Below, piece after piece: positions 3,613 to 33,810 of a DNA stretch of 38,890 nt. Location of the stretch: positions 1-38,890 of the IMG/VR virus record IMGVR_UViG_3300042465_002416; one strand, given 5' to 3'. A model generated the notes under the pieces. The model saw only the letters and a program-made list of their open reading frames with translations. It had not been told where the DNA came from and did no database searches. A program made the position numbers and the translations under genes. Positions within the stretch are counted from its first letter, which is position 1; the number at the start of each line of letters is the position of its first letter. The stretch comes from a virus.

Positions 3613-3615
3613 CAT

Positions 3616-4862: not shown

Positions 4863-4879
4863 AGTATCGGAGAAACGAA

Positions 4880-9447: not shown

Positions 9448-9497
9448 CACAAGATGAGAGTATCTTGTGTTCCAGGCAACAAACTTTTTAACCCTGG
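9448..9497 (+). promoter_or_regulatory. Structured gp32 leader (5'-terminal hairpin plus CCAGG/CCTGG pairing)
   Basis: CACAAGAT (9448-9455) pairs perfectly with ATCTTGTG (9462-9469) around the 6-base loop GAGAGT, so the RNA would begin with a stem-loop. CCAGG (9472-9476) can pair with CCTGG (9493-9497). T4 gene 32 mRNA is translationally autoregulated through a leader pseudoknot and an unstructured A/U-rich ribosome site; this leader is a candidate for the same logic (inference). An AAGGAAAA site precedes the ATG. Confidence 0.55.
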
Positions 9498-9520
9498 CAT
9501 TTTTAATAAGGAAAAACATT

Positions 9521-10534
9521 ATGGCAACTTCACTAGCAGAAATCCGCGCTCGCTTACTAGAGCAAGACACACGTCAAAGCGGCAACAACAATCGCTCACA
9601 GGGCGACAACGGAATTTTTCCGTTCTGGAATATCCCAGAAAATTCAACCACAGTACTACGCTTTCTCCCAGATGGAGATGAGACAAATACTTTCCCATGG
9701 CGTGAACGTCAAATGATCCGACTAGAATTCGCAGGAGTTCTAGGTGGAGATGAAAATAAGAAAGTAACTGTAACAGTTCCTTGTATGGAAATGTGGAAAG
9801 AGACTTGTCCTATCCACGCAGAGATTCGTCCTTGGTTCAAGGATAAGAGTCTGGAAGATCTTGGTCGTAAATATTGGAAGAAAAAATCTTATGTGTTCCA
9901 GGGCTTTGTAGTAGATACAAAGCTACAAGAAGATGCACAACCGGAAAATCCAATCCGTCGTTTGATTATCAACCCAAGTATCTTTAACATTGTTAAGGGT
10001 GCATTGATGGATCCAGAAATGGATAATCTGTTTACAGACTACGAAAACGGCACAGACTTCCGTCTAACAAAGACTACAAAAGGGCAATATGCAGACTATA
10101 GCACAAGTAGCTTTGCACGTAAAGAGCGTGGTTTGAACGAAGTAGAACTGCAAGCTATTGCAGATCACGGCTTGTTTACTTTAAATGACTTTATGCCTAA
10201 AAAGCCAACTAAAGAAGAAGTTGACGTCATTTATGATATGTTCAAAGCCAGCGTTGACGGCGAATTGTATGATCCCAAGCGTTGGGGTCAGCATTTTAAA
10301 CCAGCAGGTGTAAACCTTGGTAACTTGGTGGCAGCATCAGATGTTGAAGCCGCAGAGTCAAGTTTCAAAGCACCAGCTCAGGCGGCTCGTCCTAGTCCTA
10401 TAGCGGCAGCAAAGCCAGCAGTTGTAGATGACGAAGACGACGCACCTTTTGAAGTTGCTGAAACAGCCGCACCAGAAGGCAAAAAGAATGTCAACGACAT
10501 TCTTGCGATGATTCGTAATCGTCAACAAAAGTAA
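9521..10534 (+). CDS. gp32: Single-stranded DNA-binding protein (gp32-like)
   Basis: 337 residues from ATG 9521, which has an AAGGAAAA ribosome site; the frame could begin at 9467 but that extension is leader sequence. It coats ssDNA in replication, recombination and repair. Visible: an N-terminal cooperativity tail with Arg/Lys (SLAEIRARLLEQD), OB-fold strands (STTVLRFLPDGD, FPWRERQMIRLEF), zinc ligands C88, C96 and H99 in PCMEMWKETCPIH, and a C-terminal acidic stretch VVDDEDDAPFEV used by gp32 for partner proteins. After that stretch a basic NDILAMIRNRQQK tail ends the protein. Flanked by a strong promoter with structured leader and a GC-rich terminator hairpin, so it can be expressed alone. 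Confidence 0.93.
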   Translation: MATSLAEIRARLLEQDTRQSGNNNRSQGDNGIFPFWNIPENSTTVLRFLPDGDETNTFPWRERQMIRLEFAGVLGGDENKKVTVTVPCMEMWKETCPIHAEIRPWFKDKSLEDLGRKYWKKKSYVFQGFVVDTKLQEDAQPENPIRRLIINPSIFNIVKGALMDPEMDNLFTDYENGTDFRLTKTTKGQYADYSTSSFARKERGLNEVELQAIADHGLFTLNDFMPKKPTKEEVDVIYDMFKASVDGELYDPKRWGQHFKPAGVNLGNLVAASDVEAAESSFKAPAQAARPSPIAAAKPAVVDDEDDAPFEVAETAAPEGKKNVNDILAMIRNRQQK

Positions 10535-10540
10535 ACACGG

Positions 10541-10597
10541 CCCGGGCCTCTGCGATAACTAACCGGTAAATGGTTATTGTATCGCCCGGGTTCTTCT
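10541..10597 (+). terminator. Large GC-rich hairpin terminator after gp32
   Basis: CCCGG at 10541 pairs with CCGGG at 10586-10590, GCGATA (10552-10557) with TATCGC (10579-10584), and TAACC (10559-10563) with GGTTA (10572-10576), around the loop GGTAAAT, followed by TTCTTCT. An asymmetric 6-base bulge (GCCTCT) sits on the left arm. Terminator function is inferred from position and the U-rich end. Confidence 0.65.
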
Positions 10598-10639
10598 ATG
10601 CAGAAGAAACGTTTATTATCACAAAGTAGAGAGTATCCA

Positions 10640-11422
10640 ATGACACTACCAGACGAAAGATATCGTGCTGTATTATGGGCAAGTAGATTCCTAGGCGAAG
10701 TTGCTCATGATAAGAAAAAGTATCCTAGAATTTCCAAAGAAGTTAGACGTGAGGCTTATAGCATACTGCGTCATTATCCCAGTGACTGGGATATGAAACG
10801 CATAGCGGATAAGGTACCCGAAGTCTTCCAAGAGAAAATGGAACCATTAACAAAAATGATTATGACTTATAATCAAGAACAAAAGGAAAATGAAATGAAA
10901 AATATACCAAATGTAACTTTTGCCTTTAGACAAGGCGATGAAGAACCTGAACAAGGTGGCTGTCCAATCGGTGGCGAGTTTGTTTTTAAAACAAGCAATG
11001 AGTTGTTTGCAAATAAACGTGTAGTAGTGTTTAGTCTCCCTGGAGCATTTACACCAACATGCAGTACATATCAACTGCCAGGATTTGAAGAACAATTCGA
11101 AGATTTCAAAGCGCAAGGCATTAATGAAATTTATTGTGTCAGCGTGAACGATGCGTTTGTTATGAACGAATGGGCCCGTGCCCTTAAAATTAAAAACGTT
11201 AAAGTTATTCCAGATGGCGCCGGCACGTTCACACAAGGTATGGACATGACAGTTGACATGAGTGCTATTGGTTTTGGCAAGCGCAGTCGTCGTTATGCGG
11301 CCATTATTGATAATGGTAACGTGGAACAAATGTTTGTAGAACCAGAATCGAGTGCCAGTGATCCTGATCCATATGGCGTTTCGAGTCCAGAAAACGTAAT
11401 GAAATATCTACAAGGAGTATAA
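10640..11422 (+). CDS. BPSL0761-like domain fused to a peroxiredoxin
   Basis: 260 residues if read from ATG 10640. Residues 1-75 (TLPDERYRAVLWASRFLGEV...RREAYSILRHYPSDWD) match the BPSL0761-type small bacterial proteins, whose N-terminus begins at this Met. Residues 86-260 are a full-length Prx5-like thiol peroxidase: PGAFTPTC with peroxidatic Cys (C56 counted from M10895), a VSVNDAFVMNEWA segment and a conserved Arg in RSRRYAAIIDNG. There is no stop between the two parts, but an AAGGA site (10883-10887) lies 7 bases before an in-frame ATG at 10895, so the peroxiredoxin may also be made alone. Role: reduction of peroxides, perhaps protecting the infected cell (inference). Ends 1 base before uvsX. 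Confidence 0.8.
   Translation: MTLPDERYRAVLWASRFLGEVAHDKKKYPRISKEVRREAYSILRHYPSDWDMKRIADKVPEVFQEKMEPLTKMIMTYNQEQKENEMKNIPNVTFAFRQGDEEPEQGGCPIGGEFVFKTSNELFANKRVVVFSLPGAFTPTCSTYQLPGFEEQFEDFKAQGINEIYCVSVNDAFVMNEWARALKIKNVKVIPDGAGTFTQGMDMTVDMSAIGFGKRSRRYAAIIDNGNVEQMFVEPESSASDPDPYGVSSPENVMKYLQGV
10883..10897 (+). promoter_or_regulatory. Internal ribosome site and in-frame start for the peroxiredoxin part
   Basis: AAGGA followed at 7 bases by ATG (10895-10897) in the same frame as the upstream domain. A TGA in another frame overlaps this ATG (ATGA at 10895-10898), exactly how an upstream gene would normally end if the frame were shifted by one base. Confidence 0.55.
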
Positions 11423-11423: not shown

Positions 11424-12497
11424 ATGACAAAACCATTTGATGTAAGTAAATTTAGAAAAGAAATCACTAAGAGCATTGAAGGTCTTAGCATTGGTTTCAA
11501 TGATCCTACAGATTGGATCAGTACAGGCAATTACACCTTAAACTATTTGATCAGTGGCGACTTTTTCAAAGGTGTACCCATGGGCAAGGTCACTGTTTTT
11601 GCTGGAGAATCCGGTGCAGGTAAATCATATATCTGTTCGGGTAATCTAGTTCGTCATGCACAAGAGCAGGGCATTTATGTTGTGCTTATTGATACAGAGA
11701 ACGCACTGGATGAAGCATGGCTTCATGCACTTGGCGTAGATACAAGCGAACAAAAATTGTTAAAACTTAACATGGCCATGATTGATGATGTAGCTATGAC
11801 TATTACAAAATTTGTAGCAGACTACAAAGCAATGGCAGAAGATTCTAGACCTAAGGTATTGTTTGTGGTAGACAGTTTAGGTATGTTGTTGACACCCACA
11901 GACGTTAATCAGTTCCAAGCAGGTGATATGAAAGGTGACATGGGTCGTAAGCCCAAAGCACTGACATCGCTGGTTCGTAACACAGTTAACATGTTTGGTA
12001 ATCTAAACATTGGTATGGTATGTACTAACCACACATACGCAAGTCAGGACATGTTTGATCCGGACGATAAGATTTCTGGCGGTCAAGGTTTTATCTATGC
12101 AAGTTCTATTGTTGTTGCTATGCGTAAGTTGAAGTTGAAACTAGACGAAGATGGCAATAAAACCACAACAGTTAATGGTATTCGTGCTAGTTGTAAAATC
12201 ATGAAAACTCGTTATGCTAAACCGTTTGAAAGTGTACATGTTCAAATTCCATACGCAACGGGTATGAGTCCTTACAGCGGATTGTTTGACTTGCTGGAAG
12301 AACGTGGCAGTTTGAAGCGTGAGGGCAACAGCTATCTTTATACAACTAAAGAAGGCGAAGTCTTTAAAGCAATGCGTAAAGCATGGACCAATGAGCTTTT
12401 GGACAAAGTAATGGCAGACATCATGCTTAGAGATCTGACAGCAGATGTAAATATAGCGGATACAACACCCTTAGAGGAGATTGAAGATGCTTCATGA
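11424..12497 (+). CDS. uvsX: RecA-like recombinase UvsX
   Basis: 357 residues. It forms filaments on ssDNA for strand exchange and recombination-dependent replication. Walker A GESGAGKS (61-68), a DTENALDEAWL segment after strand 2 (catalytic Glu region), Walker B KVLFVVDSLG (D150), and the loop-containing stretch MKGDMGRKPKALTSLVRN followed by GMVCTNHTYAS. Length is close to T4 UvsX (391). An AAGGAG ribosome site overlaps the peroxiredoxin stop region. The 3' end overlaps the next gene by 11 bases. Confidence 0.95.
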   Translation: MTKPFDVSKFRKEITKSIEGLSIGFNDPTDWISTGNYTLNYLISGDFFKGVPMGKVTVFAGESGAGKSYICSGNLVRHAQEQGIYVVLIDTENALDEAWLHALGVDTSEQKLLKLNMAMIDDVAMTITKFVADYKAMAEDSRPKVLFVVDSLGMLLTPTDVNQFQAGDMKGDMGRKPKALTSLVRNTVNMFGNLNIGMVCTNHTYASQDMFDPDDKISGGQGFIYASSIVVAMRKLKLKLDEDGNKTTTVNGIRASCKIMKTRYAKPFESVHVQIPYATGMSPYSGLFDLLEERGSLKREGNSYLYTTKEGEVFKAMRKAWTNELLDKVMADIMLRDLTADVNIADTTPLEEIEDAS

Positions 12498-12756
12498 TGA
12501 ACAAGTTAATTTGATTGTGGACGTATGGGCCACTGTTAAGACTTACATTGATAAGAAAGAACGCTATGATGCTGCCTGTGCATTACTGCGTAGTTTGGAA
12601 AATCACTATGAAATGGATAGTGTTGCAGAAGAACTTCTTGGTAATGATTCTACATTAGATACAGTAATTAAAGACTTATATACTGCCAACGACATCGTCG
12701 ATGACGACGATGACTACGAAGAAGATAATTACGATTCCGACCACGACGAAGAATGA
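12487..12756 (+). CDS. Small acidic protein between uvsX and uvsY
   Basis: 89 residues from ATG 12487, chosen because GAGGAG lies 6 bases upstream inside the uvsX end. The N-terminal 55 residues are predicted helical (VNLIVDVWATVKTYIDKKERYDAACALLRSLE). The C-terminal third is an extreme acidic tail, rich in Asp/Glu/Tyr (IVDDDDDYEEDNYDSDHDEE), which could mimic DNA or contact basic partners such as UvsX/UvsY. Its stop overlaps the uvsY start (ATGA). No family recognised. Confidence 0.7.
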   Translation: MLHDEQVNLIVDVWATVKTYIDKKERYDAACALLRSLENHYEMDSVAEELLGNDSTLDTVIKDLYTANDIVDDDDDYEEDNYDSDHDEE

Positions 12757-13214
12757 GTAATTGGTACAGACGTGTTACCGGCAACTTAGGCGAGTTGCCG
12801 GGTGCGATTGCCTACTACGAAGCTGAGTTACAAGATGCTAGAATAGAAACTAGTATTAAAGGTAACTTAGAATCTAACTCCAGACTTATGCCCGGAATAG
12901 TGGAACACAGATTTAACCAATTACAAGAAGTCGAAGCTATACTCGAATTCCTAAACATCCAACTAAGAAAAAAACGAAGTGAGATGTTTAGGAAGTATAC
13001 TGAGAACTATAATAGAACACTCAGTGATCGTAGTGCGGACAAGTATGTGGACGGCGACGACGAAGTAATTGAATGGCAAGTTCTTGTTAATGAGTTTGCT
13101 ATGATCCGTAACAAATATCTCGGTATCATGAAAGCTATTGACACCAAGCAATGGCAAATTACTAATATTGTCAAACTCCGTGTAGCGGGTATGGACGATA
13201 CAACTTTGGGTTAA
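12753..13214 (+). CDS. uvsY: Recombination mediator UvsY
   Basis: 153 residues (T4 UvsY is 137). UvsY loads UvsX onto gp32-coated ssDNA. The diagnostic pattern is present: AYYEAELQDARIETSIKGNLE, then LMPGIVEHRFNQLQEVEAILEFLNIQ, FRKYTENYNRTLSDRSADKYVDGD, FAMIRNKYLGIMKAIDTKQWQI and a final LRVAGMDD. Translationally coupled to the acidic upstream gene by a 4-base overlap. With uvsX and gp32 it completes the presynaptic recombination set in 3.7 kb. Confidence 0.92.
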   Translation: MSNWYRRVTGNLGELPGAIAYYEAELQDARIETSIKGNLESNSRLMPGIVEHRFNQLQEVEAILEFLNIQLRKKRSEMFRKYTENYNRTLSDRSADKYVDGDDEVIEWQVLVNEFAMIRNKYLGIMKAIDTKQWQITNIVKLRVAGMDDTTLG

Positions 13215-14640: not shown

Positions 14641-14674
14641 CAATGCCTAGTTAATTGATGTTAACTAGGCATTG
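14641..14674 (+). repeat. 14-bp perfect palindrome embracing a -35 box
   Basis: CAATGCCTAGTTAA (14641-14654) and TTAACTAGGCATTG (14661-14674) are exact reverse complements. The 6-base loop TTGATG is itself the -35 hexamer of the following promoter and the right arm is its spacer. No T-tract follows, so an operator or a bifunctional cruciform/hairpin is more likely than a simple terminator. Confidence 0.8.
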
Positions 14675-14683
14675 TGCTATAAT
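14655..14683 (+). promoter_or_regulatory. Sigma70-type promoter for the S8 protease gene
   Basis: TTGATG (14655-14660), 17-base spacer, TATAAT (14678-14683) with extended -10 TGC. Predicted RNA start is near 14690, 22 bases before the ATG at 14712. Confidence 0.75.
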
Positions 14684-14711
14684 AACTTTTAAAACAACAA
14701 AGGGAATTCAA

Positions 14712-16799
14712 ATGAAATTCAAACCCACTCTCGTAGCAGTAGCAGTTTTGACATTGGCTGGAAGTGTGCAGGCTCAAACTCCTGCTCCACAGACTTATCT
14801 ATCTCCAACTGGAAAACGTTATGAAAGCATTGAACAATATCAGATTCAAACTGTATTAAACAGAGTTGGTGCCCCAGAAGCGTGGTCGCGTGGCTATACA
14901 GGTAAAGGAGTTAGCATAGCAATCATCGATAACGGATTTGACTTGGGAACATACGATTTAAAAGGGGCGGTTGGTAGCTATAAAAACTTTTATGTAGGTT
15001 CTATTAGTGCTGCCAACACTGGTTGGGGCGAGCATGGTACGGCAATGTCAAGTATTGCCGCAGGCAGATATGGTGGTGACGTAGGTACAGTAGGTGTTGC
15101 ATATGATGCGACCTTGCTACTTGCACAGGCAGGTCAGGGCGGCAGGATGCCTCAAATTGATGATGCCGCAGTTATTCGAGCATTAAACTGGGCTGGAGAA
15201 AATAAAGCAGTTGCAGTTAATATGAGCTTTAGTTCTGCCTTTAATGTAGATTACGTTAAAGGTACTAAACGGATTGGCAATACTGATTTTTATCAAGGTA
15301 GCGCAACATCTAGTGCGATGTATGGAAAAGTAAACACATTAAAAACATATTTTACATCAACTAATACAACTAGTGTTATTGTAGCCGCCGCTGGTAATCA
15401 AGGACTAGCGTATTCGGGCTATCCGGGTGCTTTTGCCACTGCTACAAATGACAAAGGTGAATTGTTGTTTGGTGGTCGTTGGTTGATTGTTGGTGCAGTT
15501 GACGCCAACAACAATATTGCTTCTTATAGTAATCGTGCAGGTAGTATCTGTACTAACGTGGTTGCAGGTGCATGTAAAGATCTATATAGTGTGAAAGATT
15601 TTTATGTTGTTGCTCCGGGAGGATCTTCACTAAAAGGTGACTTTGTCGCAGTAGCATATGATAAAAGCAAAGCGGCAGAAACTCTTGCCGGCGGTCTTGG
15701 TTCTGGTACAAGTCAAGCAACAGCGATTGTAACCGGCGGCATTGCAATTATTAAGCAAGCATGGCCACAGCTTAGTGCCGCACAGATTGTCCAGTTGGTT
15801 AAAACTACTGCCACTGACTTGGGTGCTAAAGGTGTAGATGAAGTTTATGGTTGGGGTATGGTTAATTTTGATAAAGCTACTCAGCCGCAGGGTTTGTTGA
15901 AGATTGCTAACTTTAAAGGATATGCATCTGCAACTCCGTTGTCATCCACAGGTGTTGCGTCAAGCGGTAGTGCTAGTCTTAAAACGAGTAGTGTGCTGAA
16001 AAATGTACAAGGCTTGGACAGTTATAATCGCAACTATACATTGGACATGACTCGGGTAGTTATTACTAATCCAGTGGCAACATATCGCAGTTCTAGTTCT
16101 TATTTGGCAATGAGTCCAGCAGGCTATAATGAAGTATCTACACCAGTAACTGAAAACTATAGCGTTAAGATGATGCAAAGTCAAACTGGTATTGCCAGTG
16201 AAGTTTCTTACAATGAACAAGGTGCTAGCTATAGTGTGCAGTTTGGTAGCATGACAGAGAAGTCGGGCTTCCTTGGTAACTATGGTACAGGTGCAATGGC
16301 ATTTGGTGATAGTTCTACTAGTTACTTACAACTTGGTACCGAACACAAGTTTGGTAGCGTAGCAGTATTTGGTAGTTACGGACTAGGTACTACTCGTGCA
16401 GGAAGTGTGCAAGACAGTATGATCCAACTTGGTAATCGTATTAGTAGTGACACATGGAGAATGGGTGTTGCTAAGAACAATGTCTTCCAAAATAAAGATG
16501 CTGTGAGCCTAAGTGTAGTTAGTCCTGTAAGTGTGCGAAATGGCTCGGCAACTGTTACAGGTGTAACTGGCTACGAGTTCACAGACAATGGTGATGGCGC
16601 AGATGCTCGGGCTATTGTTAGCACAGAGACTATCAACTTGCGAGCACAAGTTAAGCCCATGGATTTGGTATTAGGTTATACTGTAATTGGTAAAGGCTAC
16701 GACCGTGTAAACGTAAATGTTGCTAGACAGTTTAACGTAGGCGGTGTTGCAGGCAATACAGCTAACAGCATTGGTGTTATGGCAGTCAAGTCTTTCTAA
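14712..16799 (+). CDS. Exported subtilisin-like (S8) serine protease with barrel-like C-terminal domain
   Basis: 695 residues from ATG 14712 (AAAGGG ribosome site; an upstream in-frame ATG lies inside the promoter palindrome and is rejected). A signal peptide is clear: basic MKFK, hydrophobic core LVAVAVLTLAG, cleavage likely after SVQA (A21). The S8 domain (about 45-410) has the catalytic triad D73 (AIIDNGFD), H108 (GEHGTAMSS), S334 (GSGTSQAT) and oxyanion Asn N229 (AAAGNQG). After a Ser/Thr-rich linker (about 415-470) the last 220 residues are alternating beta strands ending in Phe (VMAVKSF), as in outer-membrane beta-barrels and autotransporters. It sits in a phage recombination cluster with its own promoter. 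Known autotransporter proteases are bacterial surface proteins; here a role at the host envelope or against competitors is inference. Confidence 0.88.
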   Translation: MKFKPTLVAVAVLTLAGSVQAQTPAPQTYLSPTGKRYESIEQYQIQTVLNRVGAPEAWSRGYTGKGVSIAIIDNGFDLGTYDLKGAVGSYKNFYVGSISAANTGWGEHGTAMSSIAAGRYGGDVGTVGVAYDATLLLAQAGQGGRMPQIDDAAVIRALNWAGENKAVAVNMSFSSAFNVDYVKGTKRIGNTDFYQGSATSSAMYGKVNTLKTYFTSTNTTSVIVAAAGNQGLAYSGYPGAFATATNDKGELLFGGRWLIVGAVDANNNIASYSNRAGSICTNVVAGACKDLYSVKDFYVVAPGGSSLKGDFVAVAYDKSKAAETLAGGLGSGTSQATAIVTGGIAIIKQAWPQLSAAQIVQLVKTTATDLGAKGVDEVYGWGMVNFDKATQPQGLLKIANFKGYASATPLSSTGVASSGSASLKTSSVLKNVQGLDSYNRNYTLDMTRVVITNPVATYRSSSSYLAMSPAGYNEVSTPVTENYSVKMMQSQTGIASEVSYNEQGASYSVQFGSMTEKSGFLGNYGTGAMAFGDSSTSYLQLGTEHKFGSVAVFGSYGLGTTRAGSVQDSMIQLGNRISSDTWRMGVAKNNVFQNKDAVSLSVVSPVSVRNGSATVTGVTGYEFTDNGDGADARAIVSTETINLRAQVKPMDLVLGYTVIGKGYDRVNVNVARQFNVGGVAGNTANSIGVMAVKSF

Positions 16800-16921: not shown

Positions 16922-18067
16922 ATGACAACAATTACCCACGCTCAAACTATTAACGGGCGTTATCTAAAATCTACCAGCCATTTCGTTTCGTTACAACAAC
17001 GTCTTGCAGATGCGCTGAAATCTTCTCCAGTATTCGTAAACATGCTAACTGCAATGGTAGACGAGTACAAACGTCGACATGCCAACTGGGCAAAGTTTTC
17101 CGACATGAAACTTTGTGAAGCAATTCAAGTTCCGATGGACAAAATCCTAATTGATACTACAATGCAACGTAGTTTGAATCTCCGTCACGTCTTGAATATT
17201 CTACAGAACTTTAAAAGTAGTATGGTGATGGCAATTCAAGTGTATGTAGACGAAAACAAACCTGGTTATTATATTGCATGGGAGGGTCAACATACTGCTA
17301 TTGCTTTGCATATTATTCTAACAAAAGTATTTGGCGAGCAGACAGCTAACGCTATGATCCCAGTTGTGATTTACAATGTCAAACAGAAATTAGAAATTCG
17401 TCGTAACTTTATTTTGCTTAATGGCGATGCCAAAGAAGAATTAGACTTTATTGACAAGTATATCCAAATGGTATTTGGTGTTAAGATTGATAAGGCGGAT
17501 GACCAAGAATGGATTGACACAGCCCTTAAGAATGACTACTTTGCCGCCGCAGGATTGTTTGCCACACATAGTAAGTTCGGAGACGAAGACCAACCAGGCG
17601 CATTTACTTTGTTAGCTGATACTCTTATGAGCAAGAGCTTGAAGACCCGCAAGCATCCAGAAGTTACTCGTATGTTTGCACAGTACTGGAGTTTCTTAAA
17701 TCAACAACGTCCTGTAGAACCCAAGGAAGCTAGGCAGTTGTATGAGTACTTTAATTTGTGTTATGAGCAAAAGATCGTAGTTGATGATGCATACTTGTTG
17801 GACTTAGTAGCTTTTACTAAAGCTAACTTCGGAGCAGACTTTGGACCCAATAGTCCATTCTGGGATAAAGTTAAAATGTCGTACGAATCGTGGTACTCCA
17901 AGGCTAATCCAGAATCATTTGCAGAGTTTGGTTTGAAAGGCTTTACTACAGAAATGCGTACAGGTATTCCGTTTTTAATTGCACAACTTAAAAAGAGTAC
18001 TAAATTAAAAGTGCCCGCATTTACTCCTAACAATGGCTTTACAGTTAACAAAAAGGACTTGTGGTAA
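16922..18067 (+). CDS. ParB/sulfiredoxin-fold domain protein
   Basis: 381 residues. Residues 69-130 carry the ParB N-terminal pattern: IQVPMDKILIDTTMQRSLNLRHV (position-of-Arg box), then VMAIQVYVDEN, and YIAWEGQHTAIAL replacing the usual dGqHRaaAl motif; the Arg of that motif is Thr here. The rest (about 140-381) is largely helical and not recognised, with an FILLNGDAKEELDFIDKYIQ segment common in phage ParB-like nucleases. Proteins of this fold act as DNA-binding or nuclease domains or as nucleotide-dependent enzymes; which applies is open. It is preceded by a perfect promoter and an elaborately structured leader, so expression is probably controlled after transcription starts. Confidence 0.7.
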   Translation: MTTITHAQTINGRYLKSTSHFVSLQQRLADALKSSPVFVNMLTAMVDEYKRRHANWAKFSDMKLCEAIQVPMDKILIDTTMQRSLNLRHVLNILQNFKSSMVMAIQVYVDENKPGYYIAWEGQHTAIALHIILTKVFGEQTANAMIPVVIYNVKQKLEIRRNFILLNGDAKEELDFIDKYIQMVFGVKIDKADDQEWIDTALKNDYFAAAGLFATHSKFGDEDQPGAFTLLADTLMSKSLKTRKHPEVTRMFAQYWSFLNQQRPVEPKEARQLYEYFNLCYEQKIVVDDAYLLDLVAFTKANFGADFGPNSPFWDKVKMSYESWYSKANPESFAEFGLKGFTTEMRTGIPFLIAQLKKSTKLKVPAFTPNNGFTVNKKDLW

Positions 18068-18074
18068 TATAACT

Positions 18075-18521
18075 ATGTTTAGAGACCCTAACAAAGACAA
18101 ACTTAAGAGCCAAAGTATTCTTAAGGAACAATATAAATTACAATGTAAATGCAGATTGGAAGATTGCGACAATGATCTTACAATTTTTGATGGTCCGGGT
18201 AGTGATGGTTTCTGCCGCGAACATCAACTTCAACTTACAGACTACGAAGGCGGTATGGGAAAAGCAGATCGCCCACATACATTTTACAGAGGTTGGCTCT
18301 GCGAGAAGTGTGGATACGATCCAAGAGAAGACAGTCAGTTTGATGATATAGAAGATCCATTTCATAAACTTCGTTGTATGCGAGGAGTAATGCACGGGGA
18401 TCATTTGGAACGCAAAAGTGACGGCGGCGCAGATACCGCAGAGAACATCCAAACTCTATGTTGTAGATGCCATATGATTAAAACATACAAAGAAAAAGAT
18501 TACTTAAAGGGCAATAAATGA
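18075..18521 (+). CDS. HNH endonuclease with extra zinc-binding cysteines
   Basis: 148 residues from ATG 18075 (an upstream in-frame start would overlap the ParB-like gene). The C-terminal 50 residues are an HNH nuclease: H110 in MHGDHLERKSDGG, N124 in TAENIQTL, H133 in CCRCH, with zinc-type pairs CEKC (76-79) and CCRC (129-132). A second cysteine group C24, C26 and C31 with CREH (47-50) lies near the N-terminus. Free-standing HNH genes in T4-like phages are often homing endonucleases, but a role in DNA processing beside uvsW is also possible. Start is 7 bases after the previous stop with no Shine-Dalgarno; a TTAACA-17-TATAAC pair lies directly upstream. Followed by a terminator. Confidence 0.78.
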   Translation: MFRDPNKDKLKSQSILKEQYKLQCKCRLEDCDNDLTIFDGPGSDGFCREHQLQLTDYEGGMGKADRPHTFYRGWLCEKCGYDPREDSQFDDIEDPFHKLRCMRGVMHGDHLERKSDGGADTAENIQTLCCRCHMIKTYKEKDYLKGNK

Positions 18522-18572: not shown

Positions 18573-18578
18573 ATGTCT

Positions 18579-20033
18579 ATGACATCTTGTACAATACATA
18601 TTAAAGACGAAGTTAACATTAAGATATCTGACTTAGTAACTGCTACTAGACGTAAACTAGAAAAAGAATTCAAGTACTTTCAGCCCTGGGCTTACCACAG
18701 TCCAGCATATAAGCTAGGACGCTGGGATGGTTGTGTTAGTTATTTTAGTCTAGGCGGTAGTACTTACTTTAATCTTCTAGATAGAATACTACCCATTCTA
18801 GTTGATGAAGGTTACAATATTGAAATTGATGACCAAAGAACTAATCATAACTTTCAATTCCGTGAGGTAACTGAAACAACACATGAACAAACTATTTGGC
18901 CCAAAGGACATGTCAATGAAGGACAACCAGTATTACTACGTGACTATCAAGTAGATGCTATTAACAAGTTCCTAAACAATTTACAATGTGTACAAGAGAT
19001 CAGTACTGGTGCCGGCAAAACTATTACAACAGCAACATTATCCGGAAGTGTGCAGGACTATGGTAGAACATTAATTATTGTTCCTAACAAAGACTTGGTC
19101 AAGCAGACATTAGAAGATTATGAACTATTGGGTCTTGATGTAGGTGTTTACTTTGGCGATAAGAAAGAACTGGGTAAGACACATACCATCTGCACATGGC
19201 AAAGTCTTAACGTATTAGAAAAACGTTTTAAAGACGGACTCAGTCCTTTAAGTCTAGAGGAGTTTGGTCAAGACTTGGTAGCAATTATTGTCGATGAAGT
19301 TCACCAAGCAAAAGCAGATGTACTTAAGGCATTGTTAAGCGGACCATTTGCTAATGTACCTATTCGTTGGGGATTGACAGGAACTATTCCTAAAGAAGAT
19401 TTTGAAAAAGTTGGATTAATTGCAACCTTAGGTCCTGTGGTAAATAAGATCGCTGCCAAGGATCTACAGGATCAAGGTGTGTTAGCTAACTGCACAGTTA
19501 ACGTCATTCAATTACAAGAGACAGCACAATACCAAACATATCAAGAAGAACTGACATTCTTAACGACAAATACTCGTCGCATAGATTTCATTGCAGAGTT
19601 CGTAAAAAGTCTTGCCTTGTCTGGAAACACATTAGTATTAGTAGATAGAATTAAAGCAGGTGAATTGCTCTGTGAAAGGATCACAGATAGTGTATTCGTC
19701 AGCGGCGCAATGAAAACAGGTGATAGAAAAGAACACTATGATGAAATTAAAGACAGCGATGGCAAGGTTATTGTGGCGACTTATGGTGTGGCCTCTGTGG
19801 GTATTAATATTCCTCGTATTTTTAATCTGGTTCTTTTGGAGCCCGGAAAGAGCTTTGTTCGCGTTATCCAAAGCATTGGACGAGGTATTAGAAAAGCTCA
19901 AGATAAGGACCATGTAGAGATTTGGGACTTGACATCAAGTGCAAAGTTTAGTAAGAAGCATCTTACTACAAGAAAGAAATACTATGAGGAAGCTGGCTAT
20001 CCTTATAAAATTGAGAAAGTAAAATACCTATGA
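18579..20033 (+). CDS. uvsW: UvsW recombination helicase
   Basis: 484 residues from ATG 18579 (an in-frame ATG at 18573 directly abuts the putative -10). SF2 helicase/translocase that unwinds branched DNA and helps switch from origin- to recombination-dependent replication. N-terminal domain ends with the UvsW-type YKLGRWDG (44-51, T4 has YGNWDG). Helicase motifs: Q-like RDYQVDAI, motif I STGAGKT (142-148), DEVH (239-242), motif III-like LTGT, and VI-type SIGRGIRK near residue 435. No Shine-Dalgarno is seen. The stop overlaps the next start (ATGA). Confidence 0.94.
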   Translation: MTSCTIHIKDEVNIKISDLVTATRRKLEKEFKYFQPWAYHSPAYKLGRWDGCVSYFSLGGSTYFNLLDRILPILVDEGYNIEIDDQRTNHNFQFREVTETTHEQTIWPKGHVNEGQPVLLRDYQVDAINKFLNNLQCVQEISTGAGKTITTATLSGSVQDYGRTLIIVPNKDLVKQTLEDYELLGLDVGVYFGDKKELGKTHTICTWQSLNVLEKRFKDGLSPLSLEEFGQDLVAIIVDEVHQAKADVLKALLSGPFANVPIRWGLTGTIPKEDFEKVGLIATLGPVVNKIAAKDLQDQGVLANCTVNVIQLQETAQYQTYQEELTFLTTNTRRIDFIAEFVKSLALSGNTLVLVDRIKAGELLCERITDSVFVSGAMKTGDRKEHYDEIKDSDGKVIVATYGVASVGINIPRIFNLVLLEPGKSFVRVIQSIGRGIRKAQDKDHVEIWDLTSSAKFSKKHLTTRKKYYEEAGYPYKIEKVKYL

Positions 20034-21703: not shown

Positions 21704-21933
21704 ATCAATACAAGCAACGAGCAGTACCAGTATTGCTAAAAAGTAAACAGGTACAAGAAGCACGAGTTAGACTGATCAACGACATGGTTGAAATAGAAAT
21801 GAATGGTAATAGAGTAGTTGTACCCACTGCCGAATCATATCAACGTTTGCTGAAAAAGGTTGCAGTATTGGAACAAAAACTGTATGCTACTGATAACAAA
21901 GCAAATAGAGCCGCTAGGATGAACAATGAGTGA
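21700..21933 (+). CDS. Small unknown protein in the replication cluster
   Basis: 77 residues, coupled to the zinc-finger gene by a 4-base overlap and overlapping the next gene by 8 bases. A short beta section (EIEMNGNRVVVP) is followed by a helix likely to form a coiled coil (YQRLLKKVAVLEQKL). No family recognised. Confidence 0.6.
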   Translation: MNQYKQRAVPVLLKSKQVQEARVRLINDMVEIEMNGNRVVVPTAESYQRLLKKVAVLEQKLYATDNKANRAARMNNE

Positions 21934-22156
21934 AAAAGATCATAACTTAGAAAATATCTATAACGAAGTTATACTAGTTATAGAAAAATTATTAAAGGAA
22001 GAGCACGATCCGTTGGCAGTGGCCGCAGTATTTGCCAGTCAAGCATTGGGGTTGTATAAAACTGTGTTAAGTGACAAAGACTATAATACCATGGTTGATA
22101 GTATTGTTGATAAAAAAGATAGAGTACAGCCTTTTGAATCTAGGAGTTTACATTGA
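21926..22156 (+). CDS. Small helical protein in the replication cluster
   Basis: 76 residues, overlapping both neighbours. Predicted all-helical, acidic N-terminus (NLENIYNEVILVIEKLLKEEHDPLAVAAVFASQALGLYK), resembling small helical adaptors seen in cyanophage-type genomes. Its last codons contain a TAGGAG site that serves the following TTG start. Confidence 0.6.
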   Translation: MSEKDHNLENIYNEVILVIEKLLKEEHDPLAVAAVFASQALGLYKTVLSDKDYNTMVDSIVDKKDRVQPFESRSLH

Positions 22157-22731
22157 GCTTTGACGTTGACATAGACTTTGCAGACCGAGAGCAAATTCTT
22201 AAAGTAGTTAAACACACAGCCGCTATGCAACATGACGGCAACAAAGAACGTAAACACAATACAGGTGTTTACTTTCATCACGTGCCCACTAATCCATTTA
22301 CAGGACTATGCACATTAGATTATAAACAAGCAGAGGATGCTGCCTGGTTTAAGATTGACTTGCTTAATGTAGGCATCTACAGCAATTTTACCAGCAACGA
22401 ACAGATTGACGACTTATTAGACAAAGAACCAATGTGGGAATTATTAGAACACAAAGATGTTATACAACAACTGTTTCATATTCATAATCACAGCGACACA
22501 GTTATTAGAATGAAGCCAAAAAGTATTGAACAACTTGCCATGGTACTGGCAGTTATACGTCCCGGTAAGAAACATTTAATAGGACGTGGCTGGATTGAGA
22601 TAGAAAAAGAAGTATGGACTAAAACAGAAGATGTTTATAGTTTTAAGAAGAGTCATGCTATTGGGTATTCGGCTGCTATTGTATTACAGCTTAATCAATT
22701 AGCTTACAGTATTAATAGTGGCAAGACCTAA
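22153..22731 (+). CDS. Miniature C-family DNA polymerase-like protein (DnaE/PolC core remnant)
   Basis: 192 residues with a TTG start; TAGGAG lies 6 bases upstream and TTGA overlaps the previous stop, which fixes the start. The protein reads as a compressed DNA polymerase III alpha core: FDVDIDF (D4, D6, D8) corresponds to PDFDVDF holding two catalytic aspartates of E. coli DnaE (D401/D403); WFKIDLLNVG (D69) to VKFDFLGL with D555; MKPKSIEQLAMVLAVIRPGK to the PxxFEDLVALxALxRPGP block; and SFKKSHAIGYSAAIVLQL to the FNKSHAAAYALxSYQ block. PHP, tau-binding and OB domains are absent and all spacers are short. Whether it is a polymerase, an inactive homologue or a regulator is unknown. The 3' end overlaps the minus-strand desaturase by 33 bases. 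Confidence 0.65.
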   Translation: MSFDVDIDFADREQILKVVKHTAAMQHDGNKERKHNTGVYFHHVPTNPFTGLCTLDYKQAEDAAWFKIDLLNVGIYSNFTSNEQIDDLLDKEPMWELLEHKDVIQQLFHIHNHSDTVIRMKPKSIEQLAMVLAVIRPGKKHLIGRGWIEIEKEVWTKTEDVYSFKKSHAIGYSAAIVLQLNQLAYSINSGKT

Positions 22732-23409
22732 TAGGCTGAGAGTTTTAATATAAAACCATCCTATATCAAATTCAAACCAGCGTTTGCTTAACTTTGCACT
22801 AGCTGGAGTCATGTGATGGTTATTGTGTAATTCTTCGCCGCCGATCCATATAGCCCAAGGTATTAAATTAGTGCTACGATCTTTTGTGTTACCATTTCTA
22901 TATCCCCACCAGTGACCCAGGCCATTAATAACTCCTGCCGCCCAAAACGGTATCCACAACATCTGTACTGCCCATATCACAAGTCCCATCCAGCCGAATA
23001 ACAACAAATTAATGGTCAGCATTACAATCACGCCTGAGTAATTATAAGGAGTGTACAGTTTTCTTTCAATCCAGTCATCGGGTGTGCCTCTGCCAAAACT
23101 CACTACCATTTTTGCATTTTTGCCCGACAAATAATAATAGTAAACACCTCTGAATAGTATGTTCAAAATTCCATGTACATGTGGACTATGTGGGTCACCT
23201 TCTTTATCAGTTGTGCTGTGATGTTTTCTATGTATTGCTACCCATTGTCTAGTAATCATGCCAGTGGTTAACCACAGCCATAATCTAAAAAAATGATCAG
23301 CAACGGGATGAAATGTAACTGATTTATGTGCTTGGCTTCTGTGTAAAAAACAGGTCACAGAGACAATGGTGATGTGGGTTAGTATAAGAGTATATAGTAT
23401 TTCTAGCAT
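22699..23409 (-). CDS. Fatty-acid (acyl-CoA type) desaturase
   Basis: 236 residues on the minus strand. Membrane di-iron desaturase that introduces a double bond into acyl chains. All three histidine boxes are present: HRSQAH (23-28), HRKHH (60-64) and ELHNNHH (H195, H198, H199), plus NGLGH (H166). Hydrophobic segments surround them (about 3-22, 40-58, 126-165). It is shorter than most bacterial delta-9 desaturases (about 300 or more) but complete by motif content. It is second in a minus-strand pair, 14 bases after the 23424-23792 gene, and its end overlaps the polymerase-like gene convergently. As an auxiliary metabolic gene it may alter host membrane lipids during infection (inference). 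Confidence 0.9.
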   Translation of the reverse strand: MLEILYTLILTHITIVSVTCFLHRSQAHKSVTFHPVADHFFRLWLWLTTGMITRQWVAIHRKHHSTTDKEGDPHSPHVHGILNILFRGVYYYYLSGKNAKMVVSFGRGTPDDWIERKLYTPYNYSGVIVMLTINLLLFGWMGLVIWAVQMLWIPFWAAGVINGLGHWWGYRNGNTKDRSTNLIPWAIWIGGEELHNNHHMTPASAKLSKRWFEFDIGWFYIKTLSLLGLATINTVS

Positions 23410-23423: not shown

Positions 23424-23792
23424 TTATAATTTTTGAACTAGTTGAATTTGTCTGCGTTTAATGCGTTTAGTGATAATGTTTTGTAGACTAACTGCTTCGC
23501 CATGTAGCAATTCAAAATCCTTGACATTATATGTTCGAAGACTATAGCTGAACCGTTTAAATTTAGGTCCTATAAACAAATTAATTGGTAGCTGTCTATT
23601 ACTCTGCCACCACCATTCTTCTCCGCACTCTAGGAATTCCTGGCGATCTTCCTTGCAGTTTAATACGTTTAACACATATATGCTGGCCAGAGTTTGAGTA
23701 TAGTTTTGTATTATACCTATGACTTCATCTTCCCCTGCCCTGCATAGGCTTAAGAAAGGGAAGTTTTCTAATATTTCTTTGTGATCTGACAT
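23424..23792 (-). CDS. Conserved-type phage protein of unknown function
   Basis: 122 residues on the minus strand from ATG 23792 (an in-frame TTG 6 bases earlier is less likely). Visible: GEDEVIGIIQNYTQ, then EFLECGEEWWWQSNRQLPINLFIG, and a basic end KRIKRRQIQLVQ. I recall proteins with this GEEWWW...NRxxPI pattern in T4-like phages of aquatic bacteria, function unknown. A late-type element GCTAAATA ends 6 bases before the ATG and no Shine-Dalgarno is present. Cotranscribed with the desaturase. Confidence 0.65.
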   Translation of the reverse strand: MSDHKEILENFPFLSLCRAGEDEVIGIIQNYTQTLASIYVLNVLNCKEDRQEFLECGEEWWWQSNRQLPINLFIGPKFKRFSYSLRTYNVKDFELLHGEAVSLQNIITKRIKRRQIQLVQKL

Positions 23793-23798
23793 TGTCAA

Positions 23799-24671: not shown

Positions 24672-25643
24672 ATGTCGGCCTTACAAACATTATTACAATC
24701 ACGCATAAATGGAAGACCTAGTCCCAAGGGCTGGCTGAGTTTCAACTGTCCGATGTGCGTGGTCAATGGGCAGAGTCGTCTAGATACAAAACGTCGCGGT
24801 GGCATGATGTTTAATCCAGACGGAGCAGTGAGCTATCATTGCTTTAACTGTCAATTTAAAACAAGTTGGACACAAGGCAGAACACTGAGCTTTAAGATGC
24901 GTAAACTTATGCGTCAGCTAGGATTCGATGAAGCAGAAGTACAGCGGTTAAACTTAGAACTACTAAGCCAAGCAGATGTAGAAATATTAGTACAACGTGA
25001 ACCAGAGCCAACCTGGACTCCTAGTTGGCCCGACTACGACTTGGGATTTGAAGTAAGACCTTTAGATACTCCTGAGAAGATAGAATATTTAAAACACAGA
25101 CAAGTATATGACTTGGCAATATGGTTGGAGACAGACACAGAATATGCCGGCTTAAACAAACGAGCTATACTACCGCTGACTTATGAAAATAGAATAGTCG
25201 GCTTTCAAAGTAGATACGTTGGAGAAATACCAGAGAAGTTTTCTAAGTATTATAAAAAAGCGCCAGCAGACTATGTGTTTGGTTTAGATAATCAGCGAGA
25301 CAATAGACAGTTTGTTATTGTCACAGAAGGTGAAATGGATGCATTGTTAACCAGCGGGTTAAGTATTGGCAGTAATAATTTAAGTGACCATCAAGCACAA
25401 CTGATTGAAGACTTAAATATAGAACCTATCGTGATTCCAGACGCAGACAAAGCAGGCAGGGACCTAGTAGAACGTGCCGCAGATTACGGCTGGAGTGTGA
25501 GTTTTCCCGAATGGGAAAACTGTAAAGACGTCAGTGACGCAGTAATGAAATATGGACGCTTGTTTGCTATTCACAGCATACTACAGGCCACAGAACACAG
25601 TCCAACAAAAATTAGATTAATGGGAAAGAGATATTGTCAATGA
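24672..25643 (+). CDS. gp61: DNA primase (gp61-like)
   Basis: 323 residues (T4 gp61 is 342). Makes RNA primers with the gp41 helicase. Zinc-binding domain with C26, C29, C57 and C60 (FNCPMC...YHCFNC). TOPRIM domain: VTEGEMDAL (E219) and IPDADKAGRD (D257/D259), as required for metal-dependent primer synthesis. The start has a TAAGG site and lies 12 bases after the BppU-like stop. Its stop overlaps the gp41 start (ATGA at 25640), giving a primase-helicase unit. Confidence 0.92.
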   Translation: MSALQTLLQSRINGRPSPKGWLSFNCPMCVVNGQSRLDTKRRGGMMFNPDGAVSYHCFNCQFKTSWTQGRTLSFKMRKLMRQLGFDEAEVQRLNLELLSQADVEILVQREPEPTWTPSWPDYDLGFEVRPLDTPEKIEYLKHRQVYDLAIWLETDTEYAGLNKRAILPLTYENRIVGFQSRYVGEIPEKFSKYYKKAPADYVFGLDNQRDNRQFVIVTEGEMDALLTSGLSIGSNNLSDHQAQLIEDLNIEPIVIPDADKAGRDLVERAADYGWSVSFPEWENCKDVSDAVMKYGRLFAIHSILQATEHSPTKIRLMGKRYCQ

Positions 25644-27130
25644 GTAATGAAGTAAAAGAATATAGTGCAGATCTACAAAAATTATTTTTAGAATTTCTAG
25701 TAAGCGACAAGGAACTACTAAGCCGTTGCCAAAACGTTTTAGAAAGTGCTTACTTTACTAGAAGTTTACAAGCAACCGCAGAGTTCATTAAAGACTATGC
25801 TGGCAAGTACAGTGACTGTCCCACAGTAGAACAGATTAAAGCAGTTACAGATACGGAACTTAGAATTATTCCAGGCGAAGCAAGCAGCCACAAGGAATGG
25901 TTCTTAACAGAGTTTGAACAGTTTGCCCGCCACAAAGCATTAGAAAAAGCAATTCTAGCCAGTGCAGATTTGTTAGACAAACAACGCTATGGCGAAGTAG
26001 AAAAGTTAATCAAAGATGCCAGTAGTATAGGTCTGCCAAAGAGTTTTGGCACAGACTACTTTGCTGATCCTAAAGGTCGACTAGAAGCATTGAGAAGAAA
26101 TAATGGTCAAATTAGTACAGGTTGGAAGACCATTGATTATAAATTATTTGGTGGATTTAACAGAGGCGAACTTAATATTTTTGCAGGCGGCAGTGGTGCG
26201 GGTAAGAGTTTATTCTTACAGAACTTAGCACTCAATTGGAGTTTACAAGGACTCAACGGCGTTTACTTTAGTCTAGAACTAAGTGAGGGATTAAGCAGTC
26301 AGCGTATGGATGCCATGCTTATGGGCATAGGTACTGCTGATATTTTTAAAGACTTAGATAACGTTGACTTGAAAATTAGGACAATGGGTAAGAAAGCAGG
26401 TAAGTTACAAATGGTACAACTCACTGCGGGCGTCACAGTGAATGATTTAAAATCATGGTTGAAAGAATTTCAGATTCAGCTTAATAAAAAAGTTGATTAT
26501 GTTATTGTTGATTATTTAGATTTGATGTCTCCGGTGTCTGTAAAGATATCAGCAGAGAACACGTTTATTAAAGACAAATACGTTTCGGAAGAACTTAGAG
26601 CAATGGCAGTACAAGACAAATACTTATTCTGTACAGCTAGTCAGTTGAATCGCGGAGCCGTGGAGAGTGTTGAATTTGACCACAGTCATATCAGTGGTGG
26701 ACTCAGTAAGATTCAAACAGCAGACAACGTGATTGGTATCTTTAACAGTATTACTATGCGTGAGCGTGGCAGAGTACAATTACAATTTATGAAGACACGT
26801 AGTTCGAGTGCAGTTGGTAGTAAGATTGAATTAGAATTTAATACAACTAGTTTACGTATTACTGACTTAGATGAAGATAGTCCAGAAGCACCAACTACAG
26901 CAGATGTGTTGCATGATAAACTTCGTCGACAGGCCCGGACAACAGAGTCCACTAGTACTTCCGCAGGATCTACTAAATGGGAAAAGCCAACTGGAACTCA
27001 TGCGTGGGATTATCAAGCCGGCGGAAAAGAATTAAAACCAGGAATTGAACCTACAAATTCAGAGCCATCCATTGCGATTAGGACAATGGACAGTAATAAT
27101 AGACTTAATAATCTTCTAAAGAAGAGTTGA
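25640..27130 (+). CDS. gp41: Replicative DNA helicase (gp41/DnaB-like)
   Basis: 496 residues from ATG 25640, overlapping the primase stop by 4 bases (a TTG two codons earlier is less likely). T4 gp41 is 475 residues. Hexameric 5'-3' helicase of the replisome. An N-terminal helical domain (1-135) precedes the RecA-like domain: FNRGELNIFAGGSGAGKS with Walker A 183-190, a VYFSLELSE strand with the catalytic Glu region, Walker B DYVIVDYLDLM, and TASQLNR plus the DNA-loop region HISGGLSKIQTADNVIG. The last 70 residues are low complexity. The stop is directly adjacent, with no gap, to the end of the convergent gene at 27131. Confidence 0.94.
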   Translation: MSNEVKEYSADLQKLFLEFLVSDKELLSRCQNVLESAYFTRSLQATAEFIKDYAGKYSDCPTVEQIKAVTDTELRIIPGEASSHKEWFLTEFEQFARHKALEKAILASADLLDKQRYGEVEKLIKDASSIGLPKSFGTDYFADPKGRLEALRRNNGQISTGWKTIDYKLFGGFNRGELNIFAGGSGAGKSLFLQNLALNWSLQGLNGVYFSLELSEGLSSQRMDAMLMGIGTADIFKDLDNVDLKIRTMGKKAGKLQMVQLTAGVTVNDLKSWLKEFQIQLNKKVDYVIVDYLDLMSPVSVKISAENTFIKDKYVSEELRAMAVQDKYLFCTASQLNRGAVESVEFDHSHISGGLSKIQTADNVIGIFNSITMRERGRVQLQFMKTRSSSAVGSKIELEFNTTSLRITDLDEDSPEAPTTADVLHDKLRRQARTTESTSTSAGSTKWEKPTGTHAWDYQAGGKELKPGIEPTNSEPSIAIRTMDSNNRLNNLLKKS

Positions 27131-33109: not shown

Positions 33110-33138
33110 TAGACTATACACTGATTTTAGTGTATAAT
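33110..33138 (+). promoter_or_regulatory. Sigma70-type promoter with overlapping palindrome, leaderless layout
   Basis: TAGACT (33110-33115), 17-base spacer, TATAAT (33133-33138). TATACACT (33115-33122) and AGTGTATA (33129-33136) form a perfect 8-bp inverted repeat around GATTTT that overlaps the spacer and -10, a plausible operator. Predicted RNA start 33145 is the A of the ATG. Confidence 0.6.
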
Positions 33139-33144
33139 GTGTAT

Positions 33145-33810
33145 ATGCTATTAAATCCAATTTACGAATACAAAAAACTCAATCGTGACGAAACTACAGG
33201 CAAGCGTCTTTATGCTTGCCCTGACGGAACAAAAGTTCCCAGCGTCACAACAGTGCTAGACTCGACCAAAGATAAAACATTCTTAATTGAATGGCGCAAA
33301 CGTGTGGGTGATGCCGAAGCAACTCGTATTAGCACAGAGTCTGCGGGTCTGGGCACACTGATGCACACACATTTAGAATATCATGTACTAGGTAAAGAAC
33401 GTCCACAAGGTAACAACCAAGTTCAGATACTGGCTCGTGACATGGCTGATACTATGATTAATCAAGCCTTCTGTGACATTGAAGAGGTATGGGGCATTGA
33501 AGCACCTTTATACTACCCCGGACTGTATGCAGGTACTAGTGATATGATCGGAGTACATAAAGGAACTCCAGCAATCATTGACCATAAGACAACTAAAAAG
33601 CCTAAGAAGAGAGAATGGATCGAAGATTACTTTCTACAATGTTGCGCCTATGCATTGGCACATAATGAAGTACATGGTACTAATATTAAAAAATGTGTAA
33701 TTAACATTATTGACCGAGATGCTAAACTACAACCATTTATCATAGAAGGCAACGAGTTTGATCACTACAGTGATCTCTGGGCTCAGCGTCTTGATCAGTA
33801 TTATAAATAA
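33145..33810 (+). CDS. PD-(D/E)XK exonuclease (RecB/Cas4-like fold)
   Basis: 221 residues from ATG 33145; in-frame GTG codons at 33130 and 33139 lie inside the promoter. The nuclease core is visible: H74 in GTLMHTHLEYH, D133 in YAGTSDMIG, D146 and K148 in AIIDHKTTK, and QCCAYA (Q165, Y169) of the RecB family motif. It likely processes DNA ends or degrades host DNA. No Shine-Dalgarno; a promoter positioned to start RNA at the ATG suggests a leaderless message. It ends in TATAAATAA, which doubles as a late-type octamer. Confidence 0.82.
   Translation: MLLNPIYEYKKLNRDETTGKRLYACPDGTKVPSVTTVLDSTKDKTFLIEWRKRVGDAEATRISTESAGLGTLMHTHLEYHVLGKERPQGNNQVQILARDMADTMINQAFCDIEEVWGIEAPLYYPGLYAGTSDMIGVHKGTPAIIDHKTTKKPKKREWIEDYFLQCCAYALAHNEVHGTNIKKCVINIIDRDAKLQPFIIEGNEFDHYSDLWAQRLDQYYK
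33802..33809 (+). promoter_or_regulatory. TATAAATA octamer at the end of the nuclease gene
   Basis: A perfect T4 late octamer that encodes the final Tyr-Lys and part of the stop; it ends 8 bases before the GTG at 33818, which has no Shine-Dalgarno. Confidence 0.45.

What the first reader, a model, noticed from the sequence alone, without database searches (positions are those of the whole stretch)
22153..22731. 192-residue miniature of the C-family DNA polymerase core
Four blocks in the correct order match DnaE/PolC: the double-Asp catalytic motif (FDVDIDF), the third catalytic Asp block (FKIDLL), the RPG block and the KSHA block. All three catalytic aspartates seem to be kept although the core is about half the usual size and PHP, thumb and accessory domains are absent. 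T4-like phages replicate with a family-B polymerase, so a reduced C-family protein may be a novel enzyme (translesion, gap filling), a decoy for the host clamp loader/clamp, or a relic under selection.
Basis: partly seen in the sequence, partly recalled or inferred. Interest (0 to 1): 0.85.

Follow-up and report, generated by a model that had tools for sequence, protein, structure and literature searches.

The report
Half of a split mini polymerase
This gene encodes the catalytic half of a very small, two-piece version of the bacterial replication polymerase that large T4-like phages carry beside their main polymerase; the family was predicted in 2021, and I found no report of anyone testing it at the bench.

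Summary
ORF 22153-22731 (+) is a real gene: TTG start, AGGAG 6 nt upstream, purifying selection, hundreds of homologues. It is related to C-family polymerase and keeps all three catalytic aspartates. D4, D6 and D69 align with E. coli DnaE D401, D403 and D555. These residues, with K67, R136-P137 and H168, are invariant in every complete homologue of 129 distinct sequences. The model (pLDDT 91) matches only Pol III alpha well in the PDB.

The protein is not a self-contained miniature polymerase. It is the C-terminal half of a split one. The N-terminal half (~175 aa, GRGSS motif, ends at E. coli residue ~393, where this one starts at ~396) is encoded elsewhere in every complete phage genome checked, beside the clamp loader gene. 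No fusion was found in 160 C-part and 192 N-part ORFs.

This split minimal Pol III alpha, in phages that also carry a family-B polymerase, was described by Iyer et al. 2021. The window is therefore a new member of a known kind; decoy and relic readings are unlikely.

My additions: residue invariance at scale, the N-half's tie to the clamp loader, and the same split point in full-size Pol III alpha of Cellulophaga/Tenacibaculum phages. Activity remains untested.

The parts
22153..22731 (+). C-terminal half of split minimal Pol III alpha (192 aa, TTG start)
   Evidence: phrog_11778 E=3.9e-62; hhalign to DnaE 395-801; AF2/Foldseek
22142..22146 (+). Shine-Dalgarno-like AGGAG, 6 nt before the TTG start; the start overlaps the TGA stop of gene 21926-22156
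   Evidence: sequence
22162..22176 (+). DVDID motif, residues 4-8: D4, D6, D8 align with E. coli D401, D403, D405
   Evidence: invariant in 129 of 129 distinct homologues; mapping posterior 0.99
22255..22266 (+). HNTG motif, residues 35-38 (E. coli HAGG 511-514)
   Evidence: H35 and G38 invariant; mapping
22351..22359 (+). KID motif, residues 67-69: K67 aligns with K553, D69 with D555
   Evidence: invariant except one cut-off ORF; mapping posterior >0.998
22558..22569 (+). RPGK motif, residues 136-139: R136-P137 align with R639-P640
   Evidence: mapping posterior 0.99 for R136 and P137; K139 is K in 127, R in 1
22645..22656 (+). KKSH motif, residues 165-168: K166 aligns with K758, H168 with H760
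   Evidence: H168 invariant; mapping
18573..20033 (+). UvsW-type DNA helicase, conserved syntenic neighbour
   Evidence: phrog_16 E=5e-78; same order in 121Q and RaK2
23424..23798 (-). small conserved opposite-strand gene, phrog_11637
   Evidence: a small minus-strand gene follows the C-part in the annotated relatives
24672..25643 (+). gp61-type DNA primase, conserved syntenic neighbour
   Evidence: phrog_47 E=4e-26, Toprim
25634..27130 (+). gp41/DnaB-type replicative helicase, conserved syntenic neighbour
   Evidence: phrog_19 E=2.6e-69

Best explanation
The gene encodes the catalytic (Mg2+- and template-binding) half of a two-subunit, minimal C-family DNA polymerase of a T4-like large phage. 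A second protein of about 175 aa, encoded elsewhere in the genome beside the clamp loader gene, supplies the other half of the palm, with the GRGS triphosphate-binding motif. The two halves meet at the loop that precedes the catalytic aspartates (E. coli DnaE ~394-397) and together rebuild a Pol-beta-like nucleotidyltransferase palm of about 365 residues. It lacks the PHP domain, most of the thumb, about 90 residues of the fingers, and the clamp-binding and OB parts. The phages replicate with a family-B polymerase, so the small enzyme most likely does short-patch synthesis at the fork (gap filling, Okazaki-fragment finishing or repair) rather than bulk replication. Shown computationally: homology, residue mapping and invariance, the separate N-half in relatives, coexistence with family-B polymerase, purifying selection. 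Inferred: physical assembly, polymerase activity, gap-filling role.
For: Homology: profile-profile 95-99% against shuffled maximum 0.7%; Foldseek top hits Pol III alpha. Active site: D401/D403/D555/K553/R639/H760 equivalents invariant in complete homologues, 129 distinct C-parts; GRGS (R362, G363, S364) invariant in 152 distinct N-parts. The halves partition the DnaE palm at residue 393/396. Co-occurrence: 10 of 10 complete reference phages carry both halves and a family-B polymerase. Of ten large contigs tested, the clamp loader is found in exactly the six that carry the N-half. No fused ORF in 160 C and 192 N ORFs. Purifying selection: close-pair median dN/dS 0.077 (C) and 0.133 (N). The same loop is the split point in full-size two-gene Pol III alpha of phages Larrie, phi13:1 and phi19:2. 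C-half synteny with UvsW, primase and helicase.
Against: No complex could be modelled (single chains only) and no assay exists. The fingers segment with the conserved LRRAMGKK region has no clear counterpart (P137 to K166 is 29 residues here, 118 in E. coli), so dNTP binding or processivity could be lost. The N-half is not in the window or in the 111 kb contig that contains it; that contig also lacks the clamp loader region. Sequence-only matches to solved structures are weak for the C-half (best E=0.005).
Confidence: 0.72

Rival explanations
1. The two halves assemble into the palm fold and bind a 3' end and nucleotide, but act as a non-processive nucleotidyltransferase or regulatory subunit of the family-B replisome (for example at stalled forks) rather than as a template-copying polymerase.
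For: Fingers and thumb are largely deleted and no clamp-binding region remains; genes sit with primase/helicase (C) and clamp loader (N).
Against: Template-strand and fingers motifs (RPGK, KKSH) and all catalytic residues are (nearly) invariant, which fits catalysis on a template.
Confidence: 0.17
2. The C-half works alone as a stand-alone minimal polymerase.
For: All three metal-binding Asp lie within this one protein; the window's nearest contigs show no N-half.
Against: The GRGS triphosphate-binding half is a separate conserved gene in 10 of 10 complete phages; contigs without it also lack the clamp loader region beside which it lies.
Confidence: 0.04
3. A catalytically dead decoy or bait for host clamp or clamp loader, or a decaying relic.
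For: Small size; phages have another polymerase.
Against: Catalytic residues invariant and strong purifying selection; the clamp- and tau-binding regions of Pol III alpha are absent; found in phages of hosts from alpha- and gammaproteobacteria.
Confidence: 0.04
4. Fragment of a normal DnaE split by a sequencing error, intron or trans-splicing intein.
For: Cyanobacterial DnaE is a known split-intein protein (established knowledge); Larrie and phi13:1 carry beta-rich extra sequence at the same split point.
Against: Halves lie kilobases to tens of kilobases or more apart in many independent genomes, end and start without extra residues, and thumb/fingers/PHP are missing in all.
Confidence: 0.03

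Closest known systems
Split minimal DNA polymerase III alpha of group 2.2 jumbo phages (Iyer et al. 2021, PMC7824862; PHROG phrog_11778 for the C-part)
   Same: Same two separate proteins from distant genes, same sub-domain partition, same co-occurrence with a family-B polymerase.
   Different: The window member is from an uncultured virus; its own N-half has not been located. The family also occurs in a 141 kb phage (Slickus01), below jumbo size.
Bacterial Pol III alpha, DnaE (E. coli NP_414726)
   Same: Palm fold, three catalytic Asp, K553, R639-P640, K758/H760 and GRGS equivalents.
   Different: One 1160-aa chain with PHP, full thumb and fingers, clamp-binding, HhH and OB parts; here about 365 aa in two chains.
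Two-gene full-size Pol III alpha of Cbastvirus phages (Larrie, phi13:1, phi19:2)
   Same: Chain break in the same loop before PDIDxDF.
   Different: Adjacent genes, 515-525 + 673-676 aa, with PHP, fingers and HhH kept (Larrie); extra beta-rich sequence at the break.
Cyanobacterial split-intein DnaE (from established knowledge)
   Same: DnaE encoded as two genes.
   Different: Different split site, and the halves are joined by intein trans-splicing; no intein sequence is seen here.
Family X polymerases such as Pol beta (from established knowledge)
   Same: Pol-beta-type palm and similar total size, so a possible functional analogue (gap filling).
   Different: Different family; no sequence match here.

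Membership tests
Split minimal Pol III alpha of large phages (Iyer et al. 2021) | C-part with Mg2+-binding aspartates homologous to Pol III alpha palm/fingers | tested here: met
Split minimal Pol III alpha of large phages (Iyer et al. 2021) | N-part (GRGS, NTP-binding) encoded by a distant gene in the same genome | tested here: inconclusive
   Met in 10 of 10 complete reference phages. Not in the 38.9 kb window or its 111 kb parent contig, which also lack the clamp loader region.
Split minimal Pol III alpha of large phages (Iyer et al. 2021) | Family-B polymerase in the same genome | tested here: inconclusive
   Present in 10 of 10 complete references and in close relatives G002 and G003; absent from the window's own fragment.
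Split minimal Pol III alpha of large phages (Iyer et al. 2021) | No PHP, OB or other Pol III alpha domains attached | tested here: met
   ORF is 192 aa; Pfam finds only a weak fingers match; no fused ORF in 160
C-family DNA polymerase (Pol III alpha, DnaE/PolC) | Three catalytic Asp (E. coli D401, D403, D555) | tested here: met
C-family DNA polymerase (Pol III alpha, DnaE/PolC) | GRGS triphosphate-binding motif in the same chain | tested here: not met
   On a separate protein in relatives
C-family DNA polymerase (Pol III alpha, DnaE/PolC) | PHP domain, full thumb and fingers, clamp-binding/OB region | tested here: not met
   alignment ends near E. coli 772-801; large gaps at 405-511 and 640-758
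C-family DNA polymerase (Pol III alpha, DnaE/PolC) | Template-directed DNA synthesis | not testable with these tools
   needs purified proteins
Split-intein DnaE | Intein N- and C-segments at the split | tested here: not met
   N-part ends at EFLK, C-part starts a few to about 16 residues before DIDID; no intein-sized extra segment

The most novel reading that the evidence does not exclude
A natural polymerase whose active site is formed in trans by two unlinked small proteins, with the fingers' nucleotide-binding segment dispensed with: a C-family enzyme reduced to family-X size that finishes gaps beside a family-B replicase. It would be a bacterial-type/archaeo-eukaryotic-type replication hybrid in one phage and the smallest known C-family polymerase.
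Probability: 0.35. Interest if true: 0.75.

Novelty: new member of a known kind. Interest (0 to 1): 0.45.

Why it matters
If active, this would be the smallest C-family polymerase and one whose active site is shared between two proteins. That gives a minimal system for asking what the fingers, thumb and PHP of Pol III alpha are for. It would also show why large phages keep a second, bacterial-type polymerase beside a T4-type one. The family is widespread (90 sequenced phages for each half, and at least 558 relatives among the first 600 candidate IMG/VR stretches), and both halves are small enough to express and assay at once.

Tried and rejected
1. A stand-alone polymerase was rejected once the PF07733 search found the second small protein in all five reference phages.
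2. The possibility that the window's clade lost the N-half: four related contigs lack it, but all four also lack the clamp loader and nearly all other neighbours of the N-half gene, so these are most simply fragments.
3. L158, an N-half contig from the same sample as the window's parent contig, was considered as the missing half and rejected: 50% G+C and tetranucleotide correlation 0.02 against 0.98 for the parent. No other N-half locus could be assigned with confidence.
4. Natural N-C fusion: none in 160 + 192 ORFs.
5. A DnaQ exonuclease as obligate partner: RNase_T was found over cut-off in only 9 of 18 records, and the family-B polymerase has its own exonuclease domain, so it is not diagnostic. 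The window's exonuclease (33130-33810) is PD-(D/E)XK, not DnaQ.
7. Intein remnant at the split point of Larrie/phi13:1: no convincing match to any solved intein; left open.
8. Cellular homologues: only 14 contigs in 84,980 genomes, 13 labelled MAG and one uncultured, probably phage contigs binned with them.

Full report
WHAT WAS CLAIMED.

THE GENE IS REAL. The frame is open for 192 codons. The only common start codon near the 5' end of the open frame is TTG at 22153, 6 nt after an AGGAG (22142-22146) and overlapping the TGA of the upstream gene, a typical coupled phage arrangement. The window is 100% identical over 38,882 bases to part of a 111 kb IMG/VR contig. Relatives of the protein occur in 90 sequenced phages and in at least 558 of the first 600 candidate IMG/VR stretches. 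In the genomes of 84,980 bacterial and archaeal species, only 14 contigs, 13 of them labelled MAG and one from an uncultured bacterium, carry one; these are probably phage contigs. Pairs close to the window protein have dN/dS 0.04-0.11; the median of 46 close pairs is 0.077.

HOMOLOGY. Single-sequence tests are weak: Pfam fingers domain E=0.025, TIGR00594 E=0.15. PHROG's phage family 'DNA polymerase' (phrog_11778) matches at 4e-62. A profile of 108 distinct homologues against an alignment of E. coli DnaE and six phage DnaE proteins gives hhalign probability 95.4% and score 69.5; 40 column-shuffled controls reach at most 0.7% and 22.1. With forced end-to-end alignment the match covers E. coli 395-801 at 98.7%. 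An AlphaFold model from 75 homologues is confident (pLDDT 91.3, pTM 0.79). Its best 12 PDB matches are all Pol III alpha (best E=8.8e-4), followed by unrelated proteins from E=0.59. TM-scores are only about 0.4, which I attribute to the cut-down thumb and fingers, so the fold evidence rests on ranking and the sharp gap.

ACTIVE SITE. Residues map as D4 to D401, D6 to D403, D8 to D405, K67 to K553, D69 to D555, R136-P137 to R639-P640, K166 to K758, H168 to H760. In 129 distinct homologues D4, D6, D8 and K67 never vary; D69, R136, P137 and H168 are missing only from one ORF cut off by the end of its stretch; K139 is R once. Deleted relative to E. coli: PHP, most of the thumb (27 residues from D8 to H35 instead of 106), about 90 residues of the fingers (29 residues from P137 to K166 instead of 118, including the LRRAMGKK segment), and everything after about residue 800.

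IT IS HALF OF THE ENZYME. A search of five reference phages with Pfam PF07733 found, in all five, one further small protein matching only about profile positions 16-98. It is 170-180 aa, ends in GRGSS...EFLK, and aligns to E. coli DnaE up to residue 393 (hhalign 97.8%; PDB search E=1.5e-7; AlphaFold pLDDT 92.1, top PDB hits Pol III alpha). The window-type protein starts at E. coli ~396. The pair therefore cuts the palm just before the catalytic aspartates. GRGS (R362, G363, S364) is invariant in 152 distinct N-parts. In 160 C-part and 192 N-part ORFs no fusion was found. In SCTP-2 the genes lie about 116 kb apart, in XacN1 about 15 kb; in contig G018 about 6 kb.

CO-OCCURRENCE. All ten complete reference phages examined hold both halves and a family-B polymerase; no family-A polymerase was found in the five tested. 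Of ten large contigs tested for the clamp loader, the six with the N-half have it and the four without do not, so the absences are most simply incomplete assemblies. The tally of INPHARED records by genus is nearly identical for the two halves (90 and 90 records).

NEIGHBOURHOOD. The C-part gene lies in a T4-type replication cluster: gp32-like SSB 9467-10534, UvsX 11424-12497, UvsY 12753-13214, UvsW 18573-20033, primase 24672-25643, helicase 25634-27130. The same order from UvsW to helicase is seen in 121Q and RaK2, with the primase/helicase side also in most of the other references. The N-part lies next to the clamp loader and, in several phages, a GroES homologue.

LITERATURE. Iyer et al. 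2021 (PMC7824862; [quoted passage not shown] The CBB paper (PMC5259590) had noted a truncated 172-aa alpha, which by its size is the N-part. No experimental test was found in the papers searched. Hence 'new member of a known kind'.

WHAT IS ADDED HERE. (a) Catalytic-site invariance over 129 and 152 distinct sequences. (b) Purifying selection on both halves. (c) The N-half tracks the clamp loader. (d) The same split point occurs in full-size, two-gene Pol III alpha of Tenacibaculum phage Larrie and Cellulophaga phages phi13:1 and phi19:2 (in Larrie PF07733 ends at position 98 in the first gene and resumes at 100 in the second). This suggests that a chain break in this loop is tolerated. (e) The pair occurs in a 141 kb phage (Slickus01), outside the jumbo class.

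MECHANISM. Shown by computation: homology, active-site conservation, N-half in relatives, co-occurrence. Inferred: the two chains assemble; the complex binds primer-template and dNTP; it does short-patch synthesis beside the family-B replicase. Loss of the fingers segment is the main reason to doubt processive synthesis and leaves room for a non-processive transferase. A model of the complex and a primer-extension assay would decide.

Noticed in passing
window 22699-23409 (-): A fatty-acid desaturase gene (PF00487, E=2.4e-13; phrog_35201) lies on the opposite strand directly after the polymerase half, between it and the conserved minus-strand gene; the annotated reference phages show no gene in that position.
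   Followed up: no
L313 4193-4196, L403 and L404 2789-2791: Two-gene, full-size Pol III alpha in Tenacibaculum and Cellulophaga phages, broken in the loop just before the catalytic PDIDxDF; about 70 residues of beta-rich extra sequence flank the break (possibly a decayed intein or inserted barrel; no convincing match found). Bacteroides phage DAC20 has extra sequence in the same loop but no break.
   Followed up: partly
L314 3511-3522: Microbacterium phage OverHedge encodes Pol III alpha as two adjacent genes (345 + 767 aa) split between PHP and palm, a different break point.
   Followed up: no
window 14655-16799 (+): A 714-aa subtilase (Peptidase_S8, E=3e-37) inside the replication gene region.
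   Followed up: no
window 10577-11422 (+): An AhpC/peroxiredoxin-like (Redoxin) protein directly upstream of the UvsX recombinase gene.
   Followed up: no
window 18033-18521 (+): HNH endonuclease gene directly before the UvsW helicase, possibly a homing endonuclease.
   Followed up: no
record OQ508957.1 (Slickus01; locus L072 lies in it), positions 3596-5100: The family-B polymerase match is spread over two open frames of 578 and 322 aa, perhaps a second split polymerase gene in this phage.
   Followed up: no
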